From Haliovirga abyssi (lineage in GTDB: Bacteria; Fusobacteriota; Fusobacteriia; Fusobacteriales; Haliovirgaceae): a DNA stretch of 64,000 nucleotides. Each line of letters begins with the position of its first letter. Position 1 is the first letter of the stretch. The notes under the pieces are model-generated. The model made no database searches, was not told where the DNA came from, and was given only the letters and a program-made list of their open reading frames with translations. Location of the stretch: the NCBI RefSeq assembly GCF_030295325.1, contig NZ_AP027059.1:1732637-1796636 (forward strand). Reading direction: 5' to 3'. The position numbers were made by a program, and so were the translations under genes. Below, in pieces: positions 1,035-9,283 of this stretch.

Positions 1035-2033
1035 TTATTTTTTACTCAAATCAAATAACTTCTTAACCTCTTTATCAAAATCAGACTCGATTGGTTGTTT
1101 TTTATTATATTCTTTATATTCTTCAAGTGCTTTTTTATCAGCTTTTTCTTTTGAGATTTTGCCCTTGCCTTCAAGAATTTTATATTCATTAAATTCTAAA
1201 AATTTAATAACACTTTTTGCAAATTCTGACATAGTGAATGCATTTCTTCTTTCAATAATATTTTCAATATAGTCAAAAAATCCTGAGATTGCTCTTTCCA
1301 GTTTTTTTATTTCATCTTCTGTTAGATAGTTCTTTGCAATTGTAACATCACTTGATAATATCCTGCCATCAGGTGCATTTTTCCAAGTTGTTAATCCCAT
1401 ATAAGATTGTTCTTTATCAGCTTTAGTGTAAATGATTTCTCCTGCTGTTTTCCCTGTAATGGCAAAGTGAAATTTATTTTGTACTGTCGCAAAAAAATCT
1501 TTTGTAGTTTGTGATTTTGGGTCGTAGTCAATACTACATTCAGCAAAAATATCTGTTATTTGCTGGTAAATTCTTCTTTCACTTGCTCTTATAGACCTTA
1601 CTTTTTCAAGTAGCTCTCTAAAGTAATCTTTTTCAAAGAATTTTTTACCTTGTTTTAGTCTGTCATCATCAATGGTAAAACCTTTTATGATGAATTCTTT
1701 TAAAACTGATGTTGCCCATATTCTAAATTGAGTTGCTCGTTTTGAGTTTACTCTGTAACCTACAGCTATAATCATATCAAGGTTATAGAATGAAGTATTA
1801 TAGTTTTTCCCATCAGAAGCAGTTATTCGAAATTTTCGAATAACTGAATTTTCATCTAATTCTCCACTTTTAAATATTTCCTTTATATGGTAGTTTATAG
1901 TATTTACTTCTACTTCAAAAAGTTCTGACATCATTTTTTGTGATAGCCATAGGGTTTCTTCTTCTAGAAATATTTCTAGTTTTACTTTTCCATTTTCTGC
2001 TGTGTATAGAATAAATTGTTGTAGTTTTTGCAT
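1035..2033 (-). CDS. RhuM-family protein (virulence-associated type)
   Basis: A 332-residue RhuM-type protein. The N-terminal half has the DNA-binding-like block with WLSQKMMSELFEV, the NxINYHIKEIFKSGEL stretch and the family hallmark YRVNSKRATQFRIWAT. The C-terminal half carries a YMGLTTWKNAPDG segment and a helical tail, and has no Fic motif, unlike the RhuM protein at 19450-20439. The start is the ATG at 2031-2033 behind GGAAGGTG; a TTG at 2048 is rejected. The molecular function of RhuM is not established. Its place beside an Abi remnant and a cassette cluster fits an accessory role. Confidence 0.85.
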   Translation of the reverse strand: MQKLQQFILYTAENGKVKLEIFLEEETLWLSQKMMSELFEVEVNTINYHIKEIFKSGELDENSVIRKFRITASDGKNYNTSFYNLDMIIAVGYRVNSKRATQFRIWATSVLKEFIIKGFTIDDDRLKQGKKFFEKDYFRELLEKVRSIRASERRIYQQITDIFAECSIDYDPKSQTTKDFFATVQNKFHFAITGKTAGEIIYTKADKEQSYMGLTTWKNAPDGRILSSDVTIAKNYLTEDEIKKLERAISGFFDYIENIIERRNAFTMSEFAKSVIKFLEFNEYKILEGKGKISKEKADKKALEEYKEYNKKQPIESDFDKEVKKLFDLSKK

Positions 2034-2131
2034 TATATCACCTTCCAAATTTTAGAGTATTATAACTTCTTTTGCTTTTTACAATTGAAATTATAATCTA
2101 TAATATTTTAAAATAAACTATCAAACTTATA

Positions 2132-2968
2132 TTATTTTTGAATTTCTAATAACAATGATGTTATTTCATCTAAATTTTTATTTGACTCAATCAAAACCTG
2201 ACAACAATTACCGTTATAAAATTTTTGAATTCCCTCTGATAATTCTTTTATTTTATGTTCTTTTATTCTTTTTTTTACTTCATCAATATGAAGCATTACA
2301 ACTATTATTATCTTGCTTTTTCTAATTTTAATATATGCAAAATTTCTTTTTTTTCTTAATGAAATATAATATCTTTGTGGATTATAAATTATTTTATTAG
2401 TTTCTAAGGACAGATTTGTCTTAATTTTATTATATATATCTTTAATTTCATCCTTAACTCCATCCAGATGATATTCTTCTGAATAATTTACAATAGACTT
2501 ATTTTCTTCACTTGCTTCAGCAATATCAATAGTTTCAATATTTTCAAAATATTTTTTTATAAATACTTCTTTACTATTCTTTTCCAAATCTGATATTCTT
2601 TCTACAAAATTAACATGATTAAAGGTTTTAAAAAAGTTATCACTAGATAAGTGACCAAAAGCTCCATGCCTTTCGGCAAAAGTATATGCAACTTTAGTTT
2701 TTATAGAAATTTATATCTTTTCCAAATACAGTAAAATTATATTTCTTAATTCTCTGTCAAAATAGTATAAATCAATTACTTCCTTTATATCTACTTTATC
2801 ATAAGAGTTTGGAAACTATTCAAAAAATTTAAGGCAATTACTAAATTTATAATAATTTACATTTGAAAGAAATTTTACCATTTTATCTTTATTTTCAATG
2901 ATAATACCTCTCGATTCTAATATATTTATCTGTTCAATAAAAGATTTATGCTCTTTTAAATACTTCAT
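2132..2968 (-). pseudogene. Broken Abi_2-family abortive infection gene with C-terminal DUF5655-like domain
   Basis: Reading down from the ATG at 2966-2968, which has a strong AGGAGG site, a single frame encodes an Abi_2-like N-terminus (MKYLKEHKSF, NYYKFSNCLKFFE, then DLYYFDRELRNI, ISIKTKVAYTFAERHGAFGHL). That frame is cut by TAG at 2816-2818 and TAA at 2711-2713. After the second stop it stays open to 2132 and ends in about 100 residues that resemble DUF5655 (YISLRKKRNFAYIKIRK). Both stops fall in conserved stretches and no frameshift is needed, so this is a gene lost by point mutation. A TTG at 2585-2587 could start a C-terminal fragment, but no good ribosome-binding site precedes it. Confidence 0.8.
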
Positions 2969-2981
2969 AATTCCTCCTAAA

Positions 2982-3042
2982 AAAAAGAAACCAGCCCCTG
3001 GTACGCTTCCATGGATAGGCGTGGCTGGTACAGTTCTTTATA
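2982..3042 (-). ncRNA. AbiF-like small RNA upstream of the Abi_2 gene
   Basis: Minus-strand unit of about 60 nt with its own promoter and terminator, ending 14 nt before the Abi_2 start codon. The outer stem pairs ACCAGCC (complement of 3023-3029) with GGCTGGT (complement of 2990-2996), followed by TTTCTTTTTTTT. An inner ACGC/GCGT helix leaves an ACCAGG bulge that could pair with CCT in the loop as a pseudoknot. A family of structured RNAs named AbiF is known upstream of Abi_2 genes; the position and layout agree, but I have not compared it with the covariance model. Confidence 0.6.
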
Positions 3043-3048
3043 CAATTA

Positions 3049-3077
3049 ATTATAACACTATTTATATAAAAAATCAA
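3049..3077 (-). promoter_or_regulatory. Promoter of the AbiF-like RNA
   Basis: Minus-strand TTGATT (complement of 3072-3077), a 17-bp spacer, then TATAAT (complement of 3049-3054). This is a near-consensus sigma-70 promoter placing the start close to 3042, just ahead of the RNA hairpin. Confidence 0.75.
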
Positions 3078-3189
3078 TTTTTCATTGATATAATAAGTAA
3101 CTTTCAATTTATTAAATTTTCAATATCATAATTAAAAAATCTTGAATCCAATTGAAACATAAATACAAAGTCAAATATAGACTTACTTG

Positions 3190-3322
3190 CCTATAACGGT
3201 TTTCGTGTCAAACGAAATCAATTAGACGGTTAGCGGAACAATCAGCGGATAGCTAAAGGGCGCACGTTAGACAAGATTAGGGGACGCGACCGCGCTCAAC
3301 AATCTTGGCTAGCTGTTATGAC
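3190..3322 (-). other. attC-like recombination site A (end of cassette 3)
   Basis: Imperfect, relatively GC-rich inverted repeat after the last gene of the cassette. Read on the minus strand it starts at the outer arm GTCATAAC (complement of 3315-3322) and ends at CGTTATAGGC (complement of 3188-3197), matching the AAC...GTT arms of attC. Inside are nested helices: CAGC..TAGCTAA with TTGGCTAGCTG, and AAGATT with AATCTT (near 3273 and 3300). The outer arm is the exact reverse complement of the 5' end of the same cassette at 5057-5064, and similarity continues about 12 bp further. The inner half (3200-3240) has extra hairpins. Confidence 0.65.
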
Positions 3323-3362
3323 TCGTAGGCAGACTGGTTTTTATCAAAAATTATTATTACAC

Positions 3363-3995
3363 TTATTTTTCACTTTTTTTTAAAATATCAATTCCGTTTT
3401 GCACTGCATTAATTGAAAAAGCTTGATAAATATTATAAAAGAATAGTAACATTTCAAAAAATAGATAAATATTTGCAATCAAGTAAATTGTAGTAAAAAA
3501 TATTTTAATCAGTATCTTTATTTTTGAATTTAATGATTGTAATGATATTACAACCATAGAATTATTAAGCAAAAATATAATGATAAAATTAAAAAATAAA
3601 AGTATCAATATATATATACAAATTCCCAAAAACTGATAATTATATATTTTAAACTTACTAGTATTATTTTGCGAATGTACCAATAATGTTTTTAGTATAT
3701 TTTCTCCAAGTAGGGCTTGAAAAATAGCATAACCTGTAAAAACTAGTGTGATAAAATACAATGATATATTATTAAGATGACTTACAATTTCTTTTATTTC
3801 TAAAATATATTTATTTGAATTTACTTCTATAAAAGTCATTAAAAATATAAAGAATAAAAGAATTATTAGCATAAGAAGAGTCTTTGGTTTAAATGACAAA
3901 CTAAACGTTGAACAAAAAGATTTTTTTATGACTTTTTCAAAAGAGTCTTCAAGCATTAAGTCTTCAAGACTTTTGGTCAGTTTTTCTTTTATCAT
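3363..3995 (-). CDS. Four-helix integral membrane protein, cassette gene
   Basis: A 210-residue protein I do not recognise. A charged N-terminal 35 residues precede four clear hydrophobic segments at about 38-58, 75-98, 120-145 and 160-190, followed by a short cytosolic-type tail ending KKSEK. The start has AGGAGAAAAAGG upstream and lies 10 bp after the stop of 4006-5004, so the two genes are translationally close and in the same cassette. A soluble protein paired with a small membrane protein is a common layout in anti-phage modules, where the membrane partner is the effector. That role is inference only. Confidence 0.7.
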   Translation of the reverse strand: MIKEKLTKSLEDLMLEDSFEKVIKKSFCSTFSLSFKPKTLLMLIILLFFIFLMTFIEVNSNKYILEIKEIVSHLNNISLYFITLVFTGYAIFQALLGENILKTLLVHSQNNTSKFKIYNYQFLGICIYILILLFFNFIIIFLLNNSMVVISLQSLNSKIKILIKIFFTTIYLIANIYLFFEMLLFFYNIYQAFSINAVQNGIDILKKSEK

Positions 3996-4005
3996 CCTTT
4001 TTCTC

Positions 4006-5004
4006 CTATCTATTATTTAACATCATTAGAAATGCAGGGTTATTAAAAATTCTTTCAATTCTCCATAAATTATTTTCATAAATATCTTTATTTTCTTTGC
4101 TTAATCCTCTCATCTCACTTTTACTTAATCTAGCCTTTTCTATTAATAAATTTGTATTTTCAACTTCCGAATTATGTTCAGGCAACTCAATTATTAATTC
4201 TTCTTTATATTCCTCTTCGCTTACTACTGCAGATTGTCCACTTTTGTCAACTCCTAAAATTTTGGACTTAGCAGTACCTTTTGTCCCTTCAACAAGATTA
4301 GCTACTTCATCATAATTTTTTGGGCTATTTATAGAAACATTCCCTGAATTTGCTTTTAATATTTCAATCTCTTCTCTAAAAGAATTAAAAATATCATTTA
4401 CAATAACTTCTCCATTTAATGGATAAATTTTCAATTCAATTCTATTTATTTTTTGAAGCTCTTCAAGTTGTTTTCTTAATTTTTCTTTTGATGGAAAAGC
4501 AACAATATTTAAACTAATATCAGGTAATAAAGAAATTTCCTTTTCTTCATCTTTTTCAAGTTTTTTTCTAATTTTATTTTCTTGTCTAATATATTTTTTT
4601 ATTATGCCTTTTGTATGAGTTTCAAAATTCTTTATTGTAGGACTTCCTTTTTGATTTTTAATTAATATTAGTCTATGATTACTTAATAAAATTATAAAAA
4701 GGGAAAATGGTGCGGTACTGTATATTTCATTTTTTTCAATCAACTGTCCATCTCTTAGATCAGATTTTATTTCTAATTCTGTCTTTTTTACAAAACAGCC
4801 TTTTAAAGCATATTCATCTCCAAATTTTATTATTTCAATATCTTTAAATGCAAAATACTTATTTTTTCCCGATTTATTAATTAATTCACTTTTTAATGCT
4901 GGATAAATAATTGTATCAAAATAATTTAACATTGGTTCATTTTCTTCACCAAAAGTACAGTTAAAATTTGCTACATTATAATACTTAAACCCTTTTATAT
5001 TCAT
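4006..5004 (-). CDS. Unknown soluble protein, cassette gene
   Basis: A 332-residue protein without recognised domain, signal peptide or membrane segment. Residues 1-135 look like mixed alpha/beta with short strands (FGDEYALKGCFV, FSLFIILLSNHRLILIKN). Residues 135-165 are highly charged and probably coiled coil. A second folded part spans about 170-230, then a Gly/Ser/Lys-rich linker and a C-terminal helical piece with LSKSEMRGLSKENKDIYE. It is the first gene of a two-gene cassette whose 5' boundary is the G^TTATGAC core at about 5063. The downstream partner is the membrane protein at 3363-3995. Confidence 0.7.
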   Translation of the reverse strand: MNIKGFKYYNVANFNCTFGEENEPMLNYFDTIIYPALKSELINKSGKNKYFAFKDIEIIKFGDEYALKGCFVKKTELEIKSDLRDGQLIEKNEIYSTAPFSLFIILLSNHRLILIKNQKGSPTIKNFETHTKGIIKKYIRQENKIRKKLEKDEEKEISLLPDISLNIVAFPSKEKLRKQLEELQKINRIELKIYPLNGEVIVNDIFNSFREEIEILKANSGNVSINSPKNYDEVANLVEGTKGTAKSKILGVDKSGQSAVVSEEEYKEELIIELPEHNSEVENTNLLIEKARLSKSEMRGLSKENKDIYENNLWRIERIFNNPAFLMMLNNR

Positions 5005-5056
5005 TTTTCCTCCTCAATTTTTTTCTAGTAAGAATAGTAACTAAGTTTGCCTATGT

Positions 5057-5145
5057 GTCATAACGTGCTTATAATTAGACAATGCCTTTGAGTGAGGTAC
5101 AAACCACCGAAAAGATATTGCTTTAGCATTGTTATACGACGTTCA
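5057..5145 (-). other. attC-like recombination site B (end of cassette 2)
   Basis: On the minus strand it runs from the arm CGTATAAC (complement of 5131-5138) through a perfect 7-bp helix, ACAATGC with GCATTGT, to the arm CGTTATGAC (complement of 5057-5065). The first arm is the exact reverse complement of GTTATACG, the 5' end of the unit at 6722 and below. The second arm donates the 5' end of the next unit. The spacing of the two helices and the unpaired bases between them are as in attC sites. It separates the DUF4062 gene from the next pair of genes. Confidence 0.7.
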
Positions 5146-5212
5146 GTTTGTGATGTCGTACTTCTTTATTCACAAAATTACTATATTTACTTTGCTTATT
5201 ATTTTATTAAAT

Positions 5213-6094
5213 TTAGAGATTAATTTGATTAATTTGATTTGTTAATATAGAAATAATTTTATCACCATTCACCCAAAATGCATTAAAAGATTTACTGCCA
5301 CCTAAATAAACTTGATGGTTTTGAATTCTTTTGAGTTCTGTAATAACTTTTATTAACTCTTCCTTATTTGGTAATTCTATATTAATTTTGCCCAAAAAAT
5401 AAGTTAATTCAGATTGAATCTGTTCTAATATATATTTACCATCGTCAATAGTATAAGTTCCCGAGTCTTTTTCAGTAATCCAATCTATTTTAAAAGAATT
5501 AAAATTTTTTTTTAATTCTTTTAAAATATAATGATTATTATCAAAATTATTTTCAAATTTTGTTTGTATATTGTTTTCAAAAGTATTTGATAGATTTTGT
5601 GCTACTAAAGTTAAGTGATTATTAATTTTACTTTTAAATTCTGAAATACTTGAAAAATTATCTACAACTCCTTGTTCATAAAGGTAATTTTTAAAATTAG
5701 TTAATTTTTCATATTGTAAACTATCTATACTTGAAGGAACAATTGGTGTATTTGAAAAATAAATCATTGTTTTTTTATCGCTACTGATAAATTGATTAAT
5801 TTCTTCAATAGTTCCAGATTCTTCAACACCAGTTGGAGTCCCTAATCTTGTCCAAAAAACTCCAATAAGAATATCACAATCATTTACAATTTGTTCATTA
5901 ATAATTTCCTGTGGTCTTCCTCCTAATTCAGGAGTTACATTTGCTTCCCACATTACAGGAGAAAACATAATTTTATAATGAGTTGAATTAATCATGTTCC
6001 AATTAAATATTAAATTTTTAAGTTCTTCCCTCTCTTGCGAAACATCTGACGGTGAAGCAATTAAAATTTTGTAAACAATACATTCATATGACAT
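5213..6094 (-). CDS. DUF4062 domain protein, cassette gene
   Basis: The first 140 of 293 residues match DUF4062: KILIASPSDVSQEREEL at the N-terminus, a VMWEANVTPELGGRPQEIIN stretch, then NDCDILIGVFWTRLGTPT and GTIEEI. In other proteins this Rossmann/TIR-like module sits in front of signalling or STAND-type NTPase domains. Here the remaining 150 residues are helical and contain no P-loop, so it is a short stand-alone form. AGGAGGACAAA precedes the ATG. DUF4062 genes recur in cassette arrays and defence loci from general knowledge; the function of this protein is unknown. Confidence 0.8.
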   Translation of the reverse strand: MSYECIVYKILIASPSDVSQEREELKNLIFNWNMINSTHYKIMFSPVMWEANVTPELGGRPQEIINEQIVNDCDILIGVFWTRLGTPTGVEESGTIEEINQFISSDKKTMIYFSNTPIVPSSIDSLQYEKLTNFKNYLYEQGVVDNFSSISEFKSKINNHLTLVAQNLSNTFENNIQTKFENNFDNNHYILKELKKNFNSFKIDWITEKDSGTYTIDDGKYILEQIQSELTYFLGKINIELPNKEELIKVITELKRIQNHQVYLGGSKSFNAFWVNGDKIISILTNQINQINL

Positions 6095-6144
6095 TTTGTC
6101 CTCCTATAATTTTTTATTTTTGTGGCTTGCTGAATCGATGTAAA

Positions 6145-6230
6145 TATGTCGGTTGGCATTGATTTATGCGACTGTCCCATTCAGATTTTACTTGCATCTC
6201 TGCCTAGAATGCCAAACGCCGAATGACATA
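6145..6230 (-). other. Imperfect hairpin C between two cassette genes
   Basis: A strong bulged stem: TTGGCATT (6153-6160) pairs with AATGCCAA (6208-6215), flanked by outer arms ATGTCGG (6146-6152) and CCG-AAT-GACAT (6218-6229), with three unpaired bases. The layout is attC-like, but the outer arms read TATGTC/GACATA where attC sites have AAC/GTT. The arms agree with each other and not with the 5' end of the preceding gene. It is either a divergent attC or a hairpin internal to a two-gene cassette. Confidence 0.5.
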
Positions 6231-6264
6231 GATGAAGTGTGGTTTTCATTTTATCTATCTAGTA

Positions 6265-6678
6265 TTAGGTGAAGTTTTTTCTTAATTCTTTAGAAAATTC
6301 AATTCTTAATAGCTTTACATTTTCTCTAACCTCTCCTCGCCATTTCTTTAAATTGTTTACTCTACCTAATTTCCTCTGTAAAAAATATTGAAATAATTTT
6401 TCCATTAAAATCTCAATGTTTTTTGGTGCAACTCCATCAATGTAAAGTATATGTATTTTCTGAGATGCTACTCTGATTTCGTCTGGAAATGTATTATAAT
6501 CATCTCTATTAGTTGCTGATACCAAAGAGATGAAAAAAGAAAAATTTTTGTATTTCTCATTTCTTATCCAAAGATTGAGGTCGCGCCTTCTTTGTAATCT
6601 ATGATTAGCTATAAGAGAAACAACTTGCCCAGCAAGACCACCAGCAAGTAGTGAAGATAGAATTTGATTTAGTTCCAA
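6265..6678 (-). CDS. Small membrane-anchored protein, cassette gene
   Basis: A 137-residue protein of unknown function. The TTG at 6676-6678 is taken as start because AAAGGAGTG lies 8 nt upstream; an open frame continues higher to 6753 but runs into the attC-like site. Residues 5-25 (ILSSLLAGGLAGQVVSLIAN) form one membrane segment, followed at once by a basic HRLQRRRDL stretch and a soluble helical domain ending in a basic tail. Single-helix proteins of this form are common in integron cassettes. It probably belongs with the DUF4062 gene, since cassette-end complementarity joins the two. Confidence 0.7.
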   Translation of the reverse strand: MELNQILSSLLAGGLAGQVVSLIANHRLQRRRDLNLWIRNEKYKNFSFFISLVSATNRDDYNTFPDEIRVASQKIHILYIDGVAPKNIEILMEKLFQYFLQRKLGRVNNLKKWRGEVRENVKLLRIEFSKELRKNFT

Positions 6679-6713
6679 AATAAACACTCCTTTAAATTTT
6701 AATATACTAAATA

Positions 6714-6802
6714 TCGTATAACGGATTTGCAGACAGACGCAGTCTATGAACATACAGCAATAGCGTAGTGAGAATAAATTGAGTCTGCTGACATGTTAGT
6801 AG
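6714..6802 (-). other. attC-like recombination site D (end of cassette 1)
   Basis: The clearest site. Minus strand: outer arm CTACTAAC (complement of 6795-6802), spacer, inner helix GCAGAC (complement of 6783-6788) pairing with GTCTGC (complement of 6729-6734), spacer, then CGTTATACG (complement of 6715-6723). The outer arm is the reverse complement of GTTAGTAG. The sequence AGTAGAA stands at the start of the same cassette (8335-8341), directly after the group II intron, which explains where the GTT went. It begins 13 bp past the stop codon of the PIN gene. Confidence 0.75.
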
Positions 6803-6814
6803 AAGTGAATCTTA

Positions 6815-8305
6815 TTAAAAGTCTAGCTCTTCACTACAAGAAGTACAAAATCCATTTAACGCATCAAATTCTCTGGATTTTTTTAAACCGCATGCAGGAC
6901 AAACAAATCCATTTGAATCATCATTCATACAGCTATTACAAATAGGCTCCCCTCTACTATTAAAAAAAATACCTTCATTTTTTCCGCATTCAACACATAA
7001 ATCAGCACTATCTGTAAAACTTTCTTCTTCCATTTCTATATAAATATCATCAATTCTAATTTCATAATTTTCATTTATGTCATCAGAAAATAATTCAATT
7101 TCTCTACTAATTTCAATATCAACATACCCCTTTAAATGATGAGTTATTGTGTTATCTGATAAAATAACCTCTTTTGTATCAGAATCTCTTCCCCAATATA
7201 TCCTTGAGAAGGCATCAAGTTTTATTTGAAATTTTAATTTATAATTAGCCTCACCAAACTCATAACCTTCAAAACTATATTCTAATAAATTGATTTCATC
7301 TATTTCTTCAGATAACTCAAACTCTGAACCATCATAATTTGATAAACTTGACGTATTTACATAAGATTCACCAGAGTAAATTAGCTTCTCATTTATTATA
7401 TTTTGAATATCTCCGCTCTCAATTAAAGAGTTGATATAATCATCTAAATTGAATTTAAATATTACATCTACTTTATCTGGTATTGATAAATTTAAGATTC
7501 TTGACATATTTATATAAAACTCTTCTGAATTTAATCCAATAATTTTTCGTTTTGTATAATCTTCAAATTCTTTAGTTAATTGTTTATGAAACGTTTTCCC
7601 GTTTTCCCACCAATCTTCTTTGACATCATCTGTTACAAATATTAAGTTTTTATTATTTTTCTCAGCATATTTTAAACATTCTTTCCATATAATTAAGTCA
7701 TTGTATTTATCAATTCCATCCTTTGATTTTTCATCTTTAAAACCAGGAGGGACTTGTTTTTTGTATCTAGTTTTTCCTTCTTCACAAATTTTATATAGTT
7801 CGTTAATGCTAAGTTCAGGAAAATATCGATTTAAATCTTCCATGTTTACAAAAAACTTTTTAACTTTATCTTCTGAAAAAATATCATCACTTATATTTTG
7901 AAAAATGTCATGATTTTCTACATATTCATCTAAAGTAAAAATTATTTCATTAAATTTACTTTCAATATTTTCTTTCAATTCATTGATATTAGGAAACTTA
8001 AATCTCTCAAGAATTAATAATTGCTTATTAATTCCTTCTTTTGAACTTTTGATTTTATTTTCAAACTCTTTTGGAATGTTCTTATACTTCTTTTTTTGAC
8101 GTCCTAAAGCAGATTGATTATTTCGTGAAAATTCTCTTTTTACAGTTGCTGGAATCATTATTTTGTCTTTGAGTTTCTCTAATAAATTAATAAAAAAATC
8201 CCCAATTTCTGGAGAATATTCGTATATATTTAAATAAACACTACTATCCAATATTATTATATAATCTTCTTCCATAAATTTATTGATTTCATTTTCTAGC
8301 TTCAT
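6815..8305 (-). CDS. PIN-like nuclease with C-terminal zinc ribbons, cassette gene
   Basis: A 496-residue protein. The N-terminal 260 residues resemble the PIN_8-type PIN-like domain: IIILDSSVYLN with the first acidic residue, a helical insert with SRNNQSALGRQK, a second acidic site in DKYNDLIIWKECL, and LIFVTDDVKEDWW with the last. A middle beta-rich region follows, and the tail has two Cys4 modules (CVEC..CNSC and CPAC..CTSC). The start is the ATG at 8303-8305, after AGG; an upstream GTG frame to 8392 would translate intron domains V and VI and is rejected. It is probably an RNA- or DNA-cutting accessory protein. Confidence 0.8.
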   Translation of the reverse strand: MKLENEINKFMEEDYIIILDSSVYLNIYEYSPEIGDFFINLLEKLKDKIMIPATVKREFSRNNQSALGRQKKKYKNIPKEFENKIKSSKEGINKQLLILERFKFPNINELKENIESKFNEIIFTLDEYVENHDIFQNISDDIFSEDKVKKFFVNMEDLNRYFPELSINELYKICEEGKTRYKKQVPPGFKDEKSKDGIDKYNDLIIWKECLKYAEKNNKNLIFVTDDVKEDWWENGKTFHKQLTKEFEDYTKRKIIGLNSEEFYINMSRILNLSIPDKVDVIFKFNLDDYINSLIESGDIQNIINEKLIYSGESYVNTSSLSNYDGSEFELSEEIDEINLLEYSFEGYEFGEANYKLKFQIKLDAFSRIYWGRDSDTKEVILSDNTITHHLKGYVDIEISREIELFSDDINENYEIRIDDIYIEMEEESFTDSADLCVECGKNEGIFFNSRGEPICNSCMNDDSNGFVCPACGLKKSREFDALNGFCTSCSEELDF

Positions 8306-8395
8306 GTTATTCCTAACTCCCTTCATAATTAGATTTCTACTGTAGGGTCGAGCTCGGATGCACATCCAAACTATGTTTTCAGACCCCGCCACCTC

Positions 8396-8428
8396 AAACC
8401 GTACGTGCGGTTCTCCCGCATACGGCTT
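8396..8428 (-). ncRNA. Group II intron domain V
   Basis: A 33-nt hairpin on the minus strand opening AAGCCGTATGCGG, loop GAGAA, closing CCGCACGTACGG. It carries the catalytic AGC triad and the 2-nt bulge of bacterial domain V. The catalytic core is intact although the intron is truncated at its 5' side. Confidence 0.85.
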
Positions 8429-8476
8429 TCCTATTAACTTCTTTTCAAATCATATAAGTTTATTCTGGTATAACTT

Positions 8477-9283
8477 TCACTCTGGTATATATTTTACTTT
8501 ATAGTTATCAAATAACCCTATTTCATTATATAACCAATCATTACTCCATCTTTTCCAACCATATCCCTTTTTTCCTCGTTGCTTCATTAGGTACCTTCTC
8601 AATTTCTTCTCCACATAATTTCTTACATATGAAAAACACTTTGATGAGTTCCCTATTGAAAAATAATTTACCCACTCTCTTAATGTTGTATTTAGCTCAT
8701 TTACCAGTATTTGAAATATTCCTAGTGTTCTATGTCTTCTTACTACTTCTTTTATCTTTTCTAACAATCCTTTCCTCTTCTTTGATTGTGGTATTGTCAG
8801 TATTCCCCATTTCCCACTTTTATTCCTTCGCCTTTTAATTATAAATCCTAAAAAGTTTATTACCCCACCTTTTTTCAAATCTACTACTCTTGATTTCTCT
8901 TTATTTATTGTTACCCCCATTTTCTCAAATTTTTCTTTCAACCTTTCAATTACCTTACTTAACAACCTTCTCATACTTGAATGACTTGATACTGTTACTA
9001 CTAAATCATCTGCGAATCTAGCATAATCTAGCTCATAATATTTACCTTTTTGCTTGGTTACTTCTTTTGCTTTTTCTAACATTTTATCAATATCATTTAA
9101 ATATAAATTTGCAAATAACAGGGATATTACTCCACCTTGTGGCACTCCTGCTTTTCCACTAGCTTTTAATATCAATTTTATTAAATATAATACTTCTTTA
9201 TCTGATATTTGCTCCGATATCTTCTTTAACAATATATGGTGTTTTACTGTATCAAAGTAATTTGATACATCTAAATCGCTCAC
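8477..9283 (-). pseudogene. Group II intron reverse transcriptase/maturase, N-terminally truncated
   Basis: The 268-residue open frame starts inside the reverse transcriptase at the RT3-like block (DLDVSNYFDTVKHHIL). It continues through GVPQGGVISLLFANLYLND and the active-site YARFADDLV, then the thumb, and ends with the group II maturase (GIIM) domain (REWVNYFSIGNSS, and GKKGYGWKRWSNDWLY). About 80-100 residues with RT0-RT2 are missing, and upstream the frame meets TAG five codons above KRKWKV. The GTG at 9283 is not a convincing start. The family can splice and retrotranspose; this copy should not be autonomous. Confidence 0.85.

What the first reader, a model, noticed from the sequence alone, without database searches (positions are those of the whole stretch)
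2132..3077. Apparently intact AbiF-like RNA in front of a dead Abi_2-DUF5655 gene
A TTGATT-17-TATAAT promoter, a hairpin with possible pseudoknot and a T-run terminator make a complete RNA unit of about 60 nt, directly before the ribosome-binding site of the Abi_2 gene. The RNA looks intact while the protein gene has two stop codons in one otherwise clean frame. The C-terminal DUF5655-like domain is an unusual addition to Abi_2. If the RNA normally restrains or serves the protein, an orphan RNA is left behind, or it has taken on another role.
Basis: partly seen in the sequence, partly recalled or inferred. Interest (0 to 1): 0.7.

Follow-up and report, generated by a model that had tools for sequence, protein, structure and literature searches.

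The report
Decayed AbiF toxin with intact RNA
This is the wreck of a known phage-defence toxin gene (AbiF): the small RNA that normally keeps the toxin silent still looks complete, but the toxin gene has two stop codons and has lost its cutting half through fusion with the tail of an unrelated gene, so it is most likely an ordinary decaying defence module.

Summary
On the minus strand, TTGATT-17-TATAAT leads into a ~60-nt hairpin RNA, a T-run, AGGAGG and an ATG; the frame 2968-2132 has stops at codons 51 and 86 and no frameshift. The RNA is a real abiF-type RNA. Rfam RF03085 gives 23.6 bits, below its cut-off of 37, but it is the only match at E<=10 in the genome and lies before the genome's only Abi_2 gene; a covariance model built without the window gives 33.1 bits, E 1.8e-6. 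AbiF/abiF-RNA is a published type III-like toxin/RNA-antitoxin pair.

Codons 1-141 are AbiF (63% identical to an intact relative); from codon ~142 the sequence is the linker plus DUF5655 tail of an unrelated ~340-aa nuclease-like family. The HEPN RNxxxH catalytic motif is gone, so the toxin is dead on two counts. dN/dS of 0.16 points to recent loss, so an intact-looking RNA is expected without any function. All 29 other Abi_2 loci inspected have the same kind of leader, including four with broken toxins. Best reading: a recently dead module. A protective orphan RNA is not excluded.

The parts
3049..3077 (-). sigma-70-type promoter TTGATT-17-TATAAT, TG before the -10
   Evidence: aligned with the promoter region of intact relative L003
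2982..3042 (-). abiF-type RNA unit of about 60 nt (ends inferred from promoter and T-run)
   Evidence: core 3029-2989 matches the covariance model at 33.1 bits, E 1.8e-6; Rfam RF03085 23.6 bits
2979..3002 (-). intrinsic terminator: 3' part of the RNA stem followed by a run of 8 T
   Evidence: 1 found, 0.1 expected; sequence
2973..2978 (-). ribosome-binding site AGGAGG, 4 nt before the ATG
   Evidence: sequence; identical in L003
2132..2968 (-). chimeric abiF pseudogene, 278 codons plus TAA
2546..2968 (-). codons 1-141: N-terminal half of AbiF (Abi_2), without the HEPN motif
   Evidence: 63% aa identity to intact L003 over 1-145, none beyond; Pfam Abi_2 1-124/184; PADLOC AbiD E 1e-30
2135..2545 (-). 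codons 142-278: linker and DUF5655 tail of a ~340-aa nuclease-like family
   Evidence: 46% identity over 112 aa to the C-terminus of the 338-aa protein of L058; 19 related loci, none next to an Abi_2 domain; PADLOC PDC-S18 167-297
2816..2818 (-). in-frame TAG, codon 51
2711..2713 (-). in-frame TAA, codon 86

Best explanation
This is the remnant of an AbiF toxin/RNA-antitoxin module. When intact, such a module makes a short hairpin RNA from one promoter. Most transcripts stop at the RNA's own terminator; read-through makes the mRNA of the HEPN ribonuclease AbiF, and the RNA binds AbiF and holds it inactive (shown by others in C. difficile; inferred here). In this genome a deletion or similar recombination joined codon ~141 of abiF in frame to the linker of a nuclease-DUF5655 gene. 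That removed the HEPN active half of AbiF and the nuclease half of the partner. Two nonsense mutations also interrupt the frame. Whether the fusion or the stops came first is not known. The RNA unit (promoter, hairpin, terminator, ribosome-binding site) has not decayed because the loss is recent; it is probably still transcribed, with no target left in this genome. Shown here: RNA family membership, chimera, loss of the motif, stops, no other Abi_2 match in the genome. Inferred: transcription, deletion as the mechanism, recency, no current function.
For: RNA identity: Rfam abiF is the only match at E<=10 in the genome, before the genome's only Abi_2 match; the model built without the window gives E 1.8e-6, and 7 of its 10 pairs carry compensatory changes. 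Chimera: AbiF similarity ends at codon ~141-145; the linker FENIETIDI...YSEEYHLDG matches L078 FENIENIDI...YTEEFHLDG; the nuclease half and the AbiF C half were not found elsewhere in the genome, as a deletion predicts. Lost motif: RNxxxH present in 25 of 29 other Abi_2 genes, aligned with R210/H215 of the solved 8vz6. Recent loss: dN 0.25, dS 1.54. Mechanism: RCd22 RNA antitoxin of AbiFCd, PMC12373285.
Against: The fusion is exactly in frame and both parts keep recognisable domain sequence, which would fit a short-lived functional fusion. dS is near saturation, so the age is rough. The Rfam score is below the gathering threshold. The stops rest on one assembly. The microhomology reading of the junction is by eye. 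The empty search for the AbiF C half had no positive control.
Confidence: 0.85

Rival explanations
1. The orphan RNA is kept by selection: it is still made and neutralises AbiF toxins arriving on phages or plasmids (an anti-addiction antitoxin), or protected the cell while the toxin was being lost.
For: RNA antitoxins of this type act in trans (PMC12373285). Every stem pair of the window RNA is kept, and differences from L003 in the hairpin core lie in loops or keep pairing. Four other broken Abi_2 genes in the order also keep an RNA leader.
Against: The loss looks recent, so an intact RNA is expected by default: two stops imply very roughly 35-40 neutral changes in the frame (4-10% per nt), i.e. 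only a few in a 60-nt RNA. No other AbiF in this genome needs it. There is no expression evidence.
Confidence: 0.08
2. The stops are sequencing or assembly errors and the locus encodes a working AbiF(N)-DUF5655 fusion protein controlled by the RNA, with a new effector tail in place of the HEPN half.
For: The frame is open apart from two stops and the fusion is in frame; DUF5655 keeps 46-51% identity to intact relatives.
Against: Two independent nonsense codons, not homopolymer frameshifts, in an assembly rated 100% complete in 2 contigs. The fusion lacks the HEPN motif and half of Abi_2; no intact copy of this architecture was seen among the 19 DUF5655 relatives, and none of the Abi_2 genes matched by P0001 had a DUF5655 tail that was recognised in the same hit.
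Confidence: 0.04
3. The RNA and leader now serve only as a terminator/insulator, or regulate a shorter translated piece (50-aa N peptide or the 151-aa DUF5655 frame from a TTG at 2587).
For: A 151-aa frame covering DUF5655 is open.
Against: I saw no convincing ribosome-binding site before that TTG (reading of the sequence only), and DUF5655 otherwise occurs attached to an effector-like domain.
Confidence: 0.03

Closest known systems
AbiF/RCd22 of Clostridioides difficile prophage phi027 (PMC12373285); PbAbiF with its RNA, PDB 8vz6
   Same: promoter, then abiF-motif hairpin RNA, then terminator, then ribosome-binding site, then Abi_2 gene; homologous N half; same RNA family
   Different: one abiF hairpin instead of two (RCd22); the hairpin itself is the terminator; the protein gene here is chimeric, has two stops and lacks the HEPN R/H pair
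Intact abiF locus L003 (G084:C58, same order)
   Same: promoter-RNA-leader 78% identical over 116 columns, RNA stems the same, protein 63% identical over residues 1-145
   Different: 290-aa open gene with a complete Abi_2 domain and RNFCAH
PADLOC candidate system PDC-S18 and its sister family (L058, L068-L086): nuclease-like N domain plus DUF5655
   Same: linker and C-terminal DUF5655 domain (46-51% identity)
   Different: the N-terminal ~200-aa nuclease-like domain is missing and replaced by the AbiF N half

Membership tests
abiF RNA (Rfam RF03085) | score at or above the Rfam gathering threshold (37 bits) | tested here: not met
   23.6 bits, E 0.05; intact same-order relative L004 also falls short at 29.9, so the Rfam model is narrow for this order
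abiF RNA (Rfam RF03085) | 7-bp outer stem, inner stem, 3' bulge and conserved loop, recognised by a profile of confirmed relatives | tested here: met
   own model without the window: 33.1 bits, E 1.8e-6, full length 1-39; all stem pairs kept
AbiF type III-like toxin/RNA-antitoxin module | RNA directly upstream of and co-oriented with an Abi_2 gene, own promoter, terminator before the gene | tested here: met
AbiF type III-like toxin/RNA-antitoxin module | complete Abi_2 domain with HEPN RNxxxH | tested here: not met
   Abi_2 1-124 of 184 only; motif lies in the lost half
AbiF type III-like toxin/RNA-antitoxin module | open toxin reading frame | tested here: not met
   stops at codons 51 and 86
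AbiF type III-like toxin/RNA-antitoxin module | RNA is expressed and neutralises the toxin | not testable with these tools
   needs RNA-seq and a neutralisation assay
PDC-S18 / nuclease-DUF5655 proteins | C-terminal DUF5655 domain | tested here: met
   PADLOC PDC-S18 E 8e-13 over 142-273; Pfam DUF5655 23.6 bits against a cut-off of 24; 46% identity to the L058 tail
PDC-S18 / nuclease-DUF5655 proteins | N-terminal nuclease-like domain | tested here: not met
   absent; only residues 198-336 of a full-length relative match in the genome

The most novel reading that the evidence does not exclude
RNA-only abiF loci are a maintained state: after the toxin is lost, the abiF RNA stays as a cheap trans-acting antitoxin that protects the lineage from AbiF modules carried by phages and plasmids, or from their use as addiction modules. 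The window and four other broken loci of the order would be examples.
Probability: 0.08. Interest if true: 0.6.

Novelty: new member of a known kind. Interest (0 to 1): 0.27.

Why it matters
AbiF and its RNA are regarded as an ancestor of the Cas13 CRISPR systems, so it matters which RNA features persist when the toxin dies. This locus shows toxin loss by gene fusion with the RNA unit left whole, and the survey shows that a promoter-hairpin-terminator leader precedes all 29 Abi_2 genes inspected in the order, mostly without a match to the Rfam abiF model. If RNA-only loci were shown to protect against incoming AbiF, they would be an RNA form of anti-addiction. As it stands this is an ordinary, instructive decay.

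Tried and rejected
Pseudoknot between loop and 3' bulge: not consistent across 11 RNAs, at most 3 pairs in the window. RNA decay through the changed loop base (CCUAU for CCUCU): the same base occurs at that alignment column in intact L005, so it is no sign of decay. A second AbiF in the genome that the RNA could serve: none. A second abiF RNA: none. A DUF5655 donor gene elsewhere in the genome: none. Abi_2 next to donor-type genes in other genomes: none. Similar DNA in plasmid records: none; the DUF5655 part in phage and plasmid records: none. Close relatives of the whole chimera in genome contigs: none. Literature on DUF5655: no paper in the library. First covariance model R1 used a shifted structure by my error and was not used; R2 replaced it.

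Full report
OBSERVATION. Everything lies on the minus strand. Reading 5' to 3': TTGATT-17-TATAAT (3077-3049, TG before the -10), a hairpin RNA of about 60 nt (3042-2982), a run of 8 T, AGGAGG, ATG at 2968 and a 278-codon frame to 2132 with TAG at codon 51 and TAA at codon 86. The terminator-like site is the only one in 1.4 kb and is not expected by chance; single promoter matches are, so the promoter rests on its position and on conservation with L003. Folding energy is not unusual for this composition.

THE RNA. Rfam's abiF model gives 23.6 bits against a threshold of 37, yet it is the only match at E<=10 in the 2.7-Mb genome and sits in front of the only Abi_2 gene. Ten abiF-type RNAs from other genomes, window excluded, were aligned; 7 of 10 pairs carry compensatory changes. 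The model built from them finds 3029-2989 with 33.1 bits, E 1.8e-6, and nothing else in the genome. L003, the nearest relative, was among the ten, so the model is not fully independent of close kin; the Rfam result is. All stem pairs are kept; the suspected pseudoknot is not supported.

THE PROTEIN GENE. Pfam Abi_2 covers only profile positions 1-124 of 184. The nearest relative, L003, is an intact 290-aa AbiF, 63% identical over residues 1-145 and not beyond, with a complete Abi_2 domain. The following residues match instead the tail of a ~340-aa nuclease-like protein family: 46% identity over 112 residues to L058, 51% to L068, and the linker itself matches L078. All 19 relatives of that tail found in genome and viral contigs lack an Abi_2 domain; where the frame is complete upstream they carry the nuclease-like N domain, and no Abi_2 gene lies near the donor-type genes tested. 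The junction falls at codon ~141/142, where both parents appear to share a short run of bases (reading by eye). The nuclease half is not found elsewhere in the genome, nor is the AbiF C half, though that empty search had no positive control. A deletion between neighbouring genes is the simplest cause; a translocation is not excluded.

CONSEQUENCE. The HEPN motif RNxxxH lies in the lost half: it is present in 25 of 29 other Abi_2 genes of the order and aligns with the solved AbiF 8vz6, whose R210A+H215A variant is reported inactive (PMC12373285). In C. difficile the equivalent R202/H207 substitutions abolish toxicity. So the gene is dead twice: by stops and by loss of the active site. Codons 1-141 show dN 0.25 and dS 1.54 against L003, mostly purifying selection, so the loss is recent compared with that divergence; dS is near saturation and the estimate is rough.

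HOW IT WORKED. In C. difficile the RNA RCd22 and abiF share a promoter, most transcription ends before the gene, and the RNA binds and silences the toxin in cis and in trans (PMC12373285). A 2025 review (PMC12737573) describes PbAbiF as a toxin held inactive by its own RNA. The window has the same anatomy. Function here is inferred, not shown.

IS THE ORPHAN RNA KEPT FOR A PURPOSE? Not shown. Two stops in the frame correspond to very roughly 35-40 neutral changes, so only a few would be expected in the RNA; its intact look is no evidence of selection. All 29 other Abi_2 genes inspected have a promoter-hairpin-U-run leader, including four broken ones, L006, L011, L015 and L028 (leaders read by eye). 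RNA surviving its toxin is therefore not rare in this order and fits the expectation that an antitoxin alone is harmless.

LIMITS.

Noticed in passing
window 3266-3313 (within GC-rich 3171-3345); L065 ~1500-1550; L066 ~1500-1560: A GC-rich palindromic element with integron attC-like ends (GTTAGNCAAGATTGTTGAG...CCCCAATCTTGNCTAACG) occurs three times in this AT-rich genome. The other two lie next to CBASS-type cyclase genes, one also beside a 2TM effector and a bSEFIR gene. Possibly cassette boundaries of defence genes.
   Followed up: partly
genome C1:65285-65758 (L116): An integron-integrase-like tyrosine recombinase piece (90 bits, below the cut-off of 265; the same search also rings in all 14 control genomes) lies about 2.6 kb from the L065 copy of that element.
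   Followed up: no
window 8342-9283; L065 1726-3070: Group II introns: RNA 3' domain at 8342-8430 with a reverse-transcriptase frame at 8477-9283, and a near-identical C-terminal RT frame with intron domains beside the L065 element.
   Followed up: partly
window 1035-8392: Island of accessory genes around the abiF remnant: RhuM (PDC-S05), DUF4062 (PDC-S60) and PIN_8 genes plus three without a Pfam match.
   Followed up: partly
L006, L011, L015, L028: Four other Abi_2 genes in the order are broken or short and lack RNxxxH, yet keep a promoter-hairpin-U-run leader.
   Followed up: partly
upstream of Abi_2 in L007-L009, L012, L014, L018, L024 and in L006, L010, L011, L013, L015, L026, L028: Two recurrent leader RNA types (stems around ACCCCTGC/GCAGGGGT and ACCCCCTGCAGT/ACGCAGGG) that the Rfam searches did not match to abiF; possibly undescribed AbiD/F antitoxin RNA classes.
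   Followed up: no
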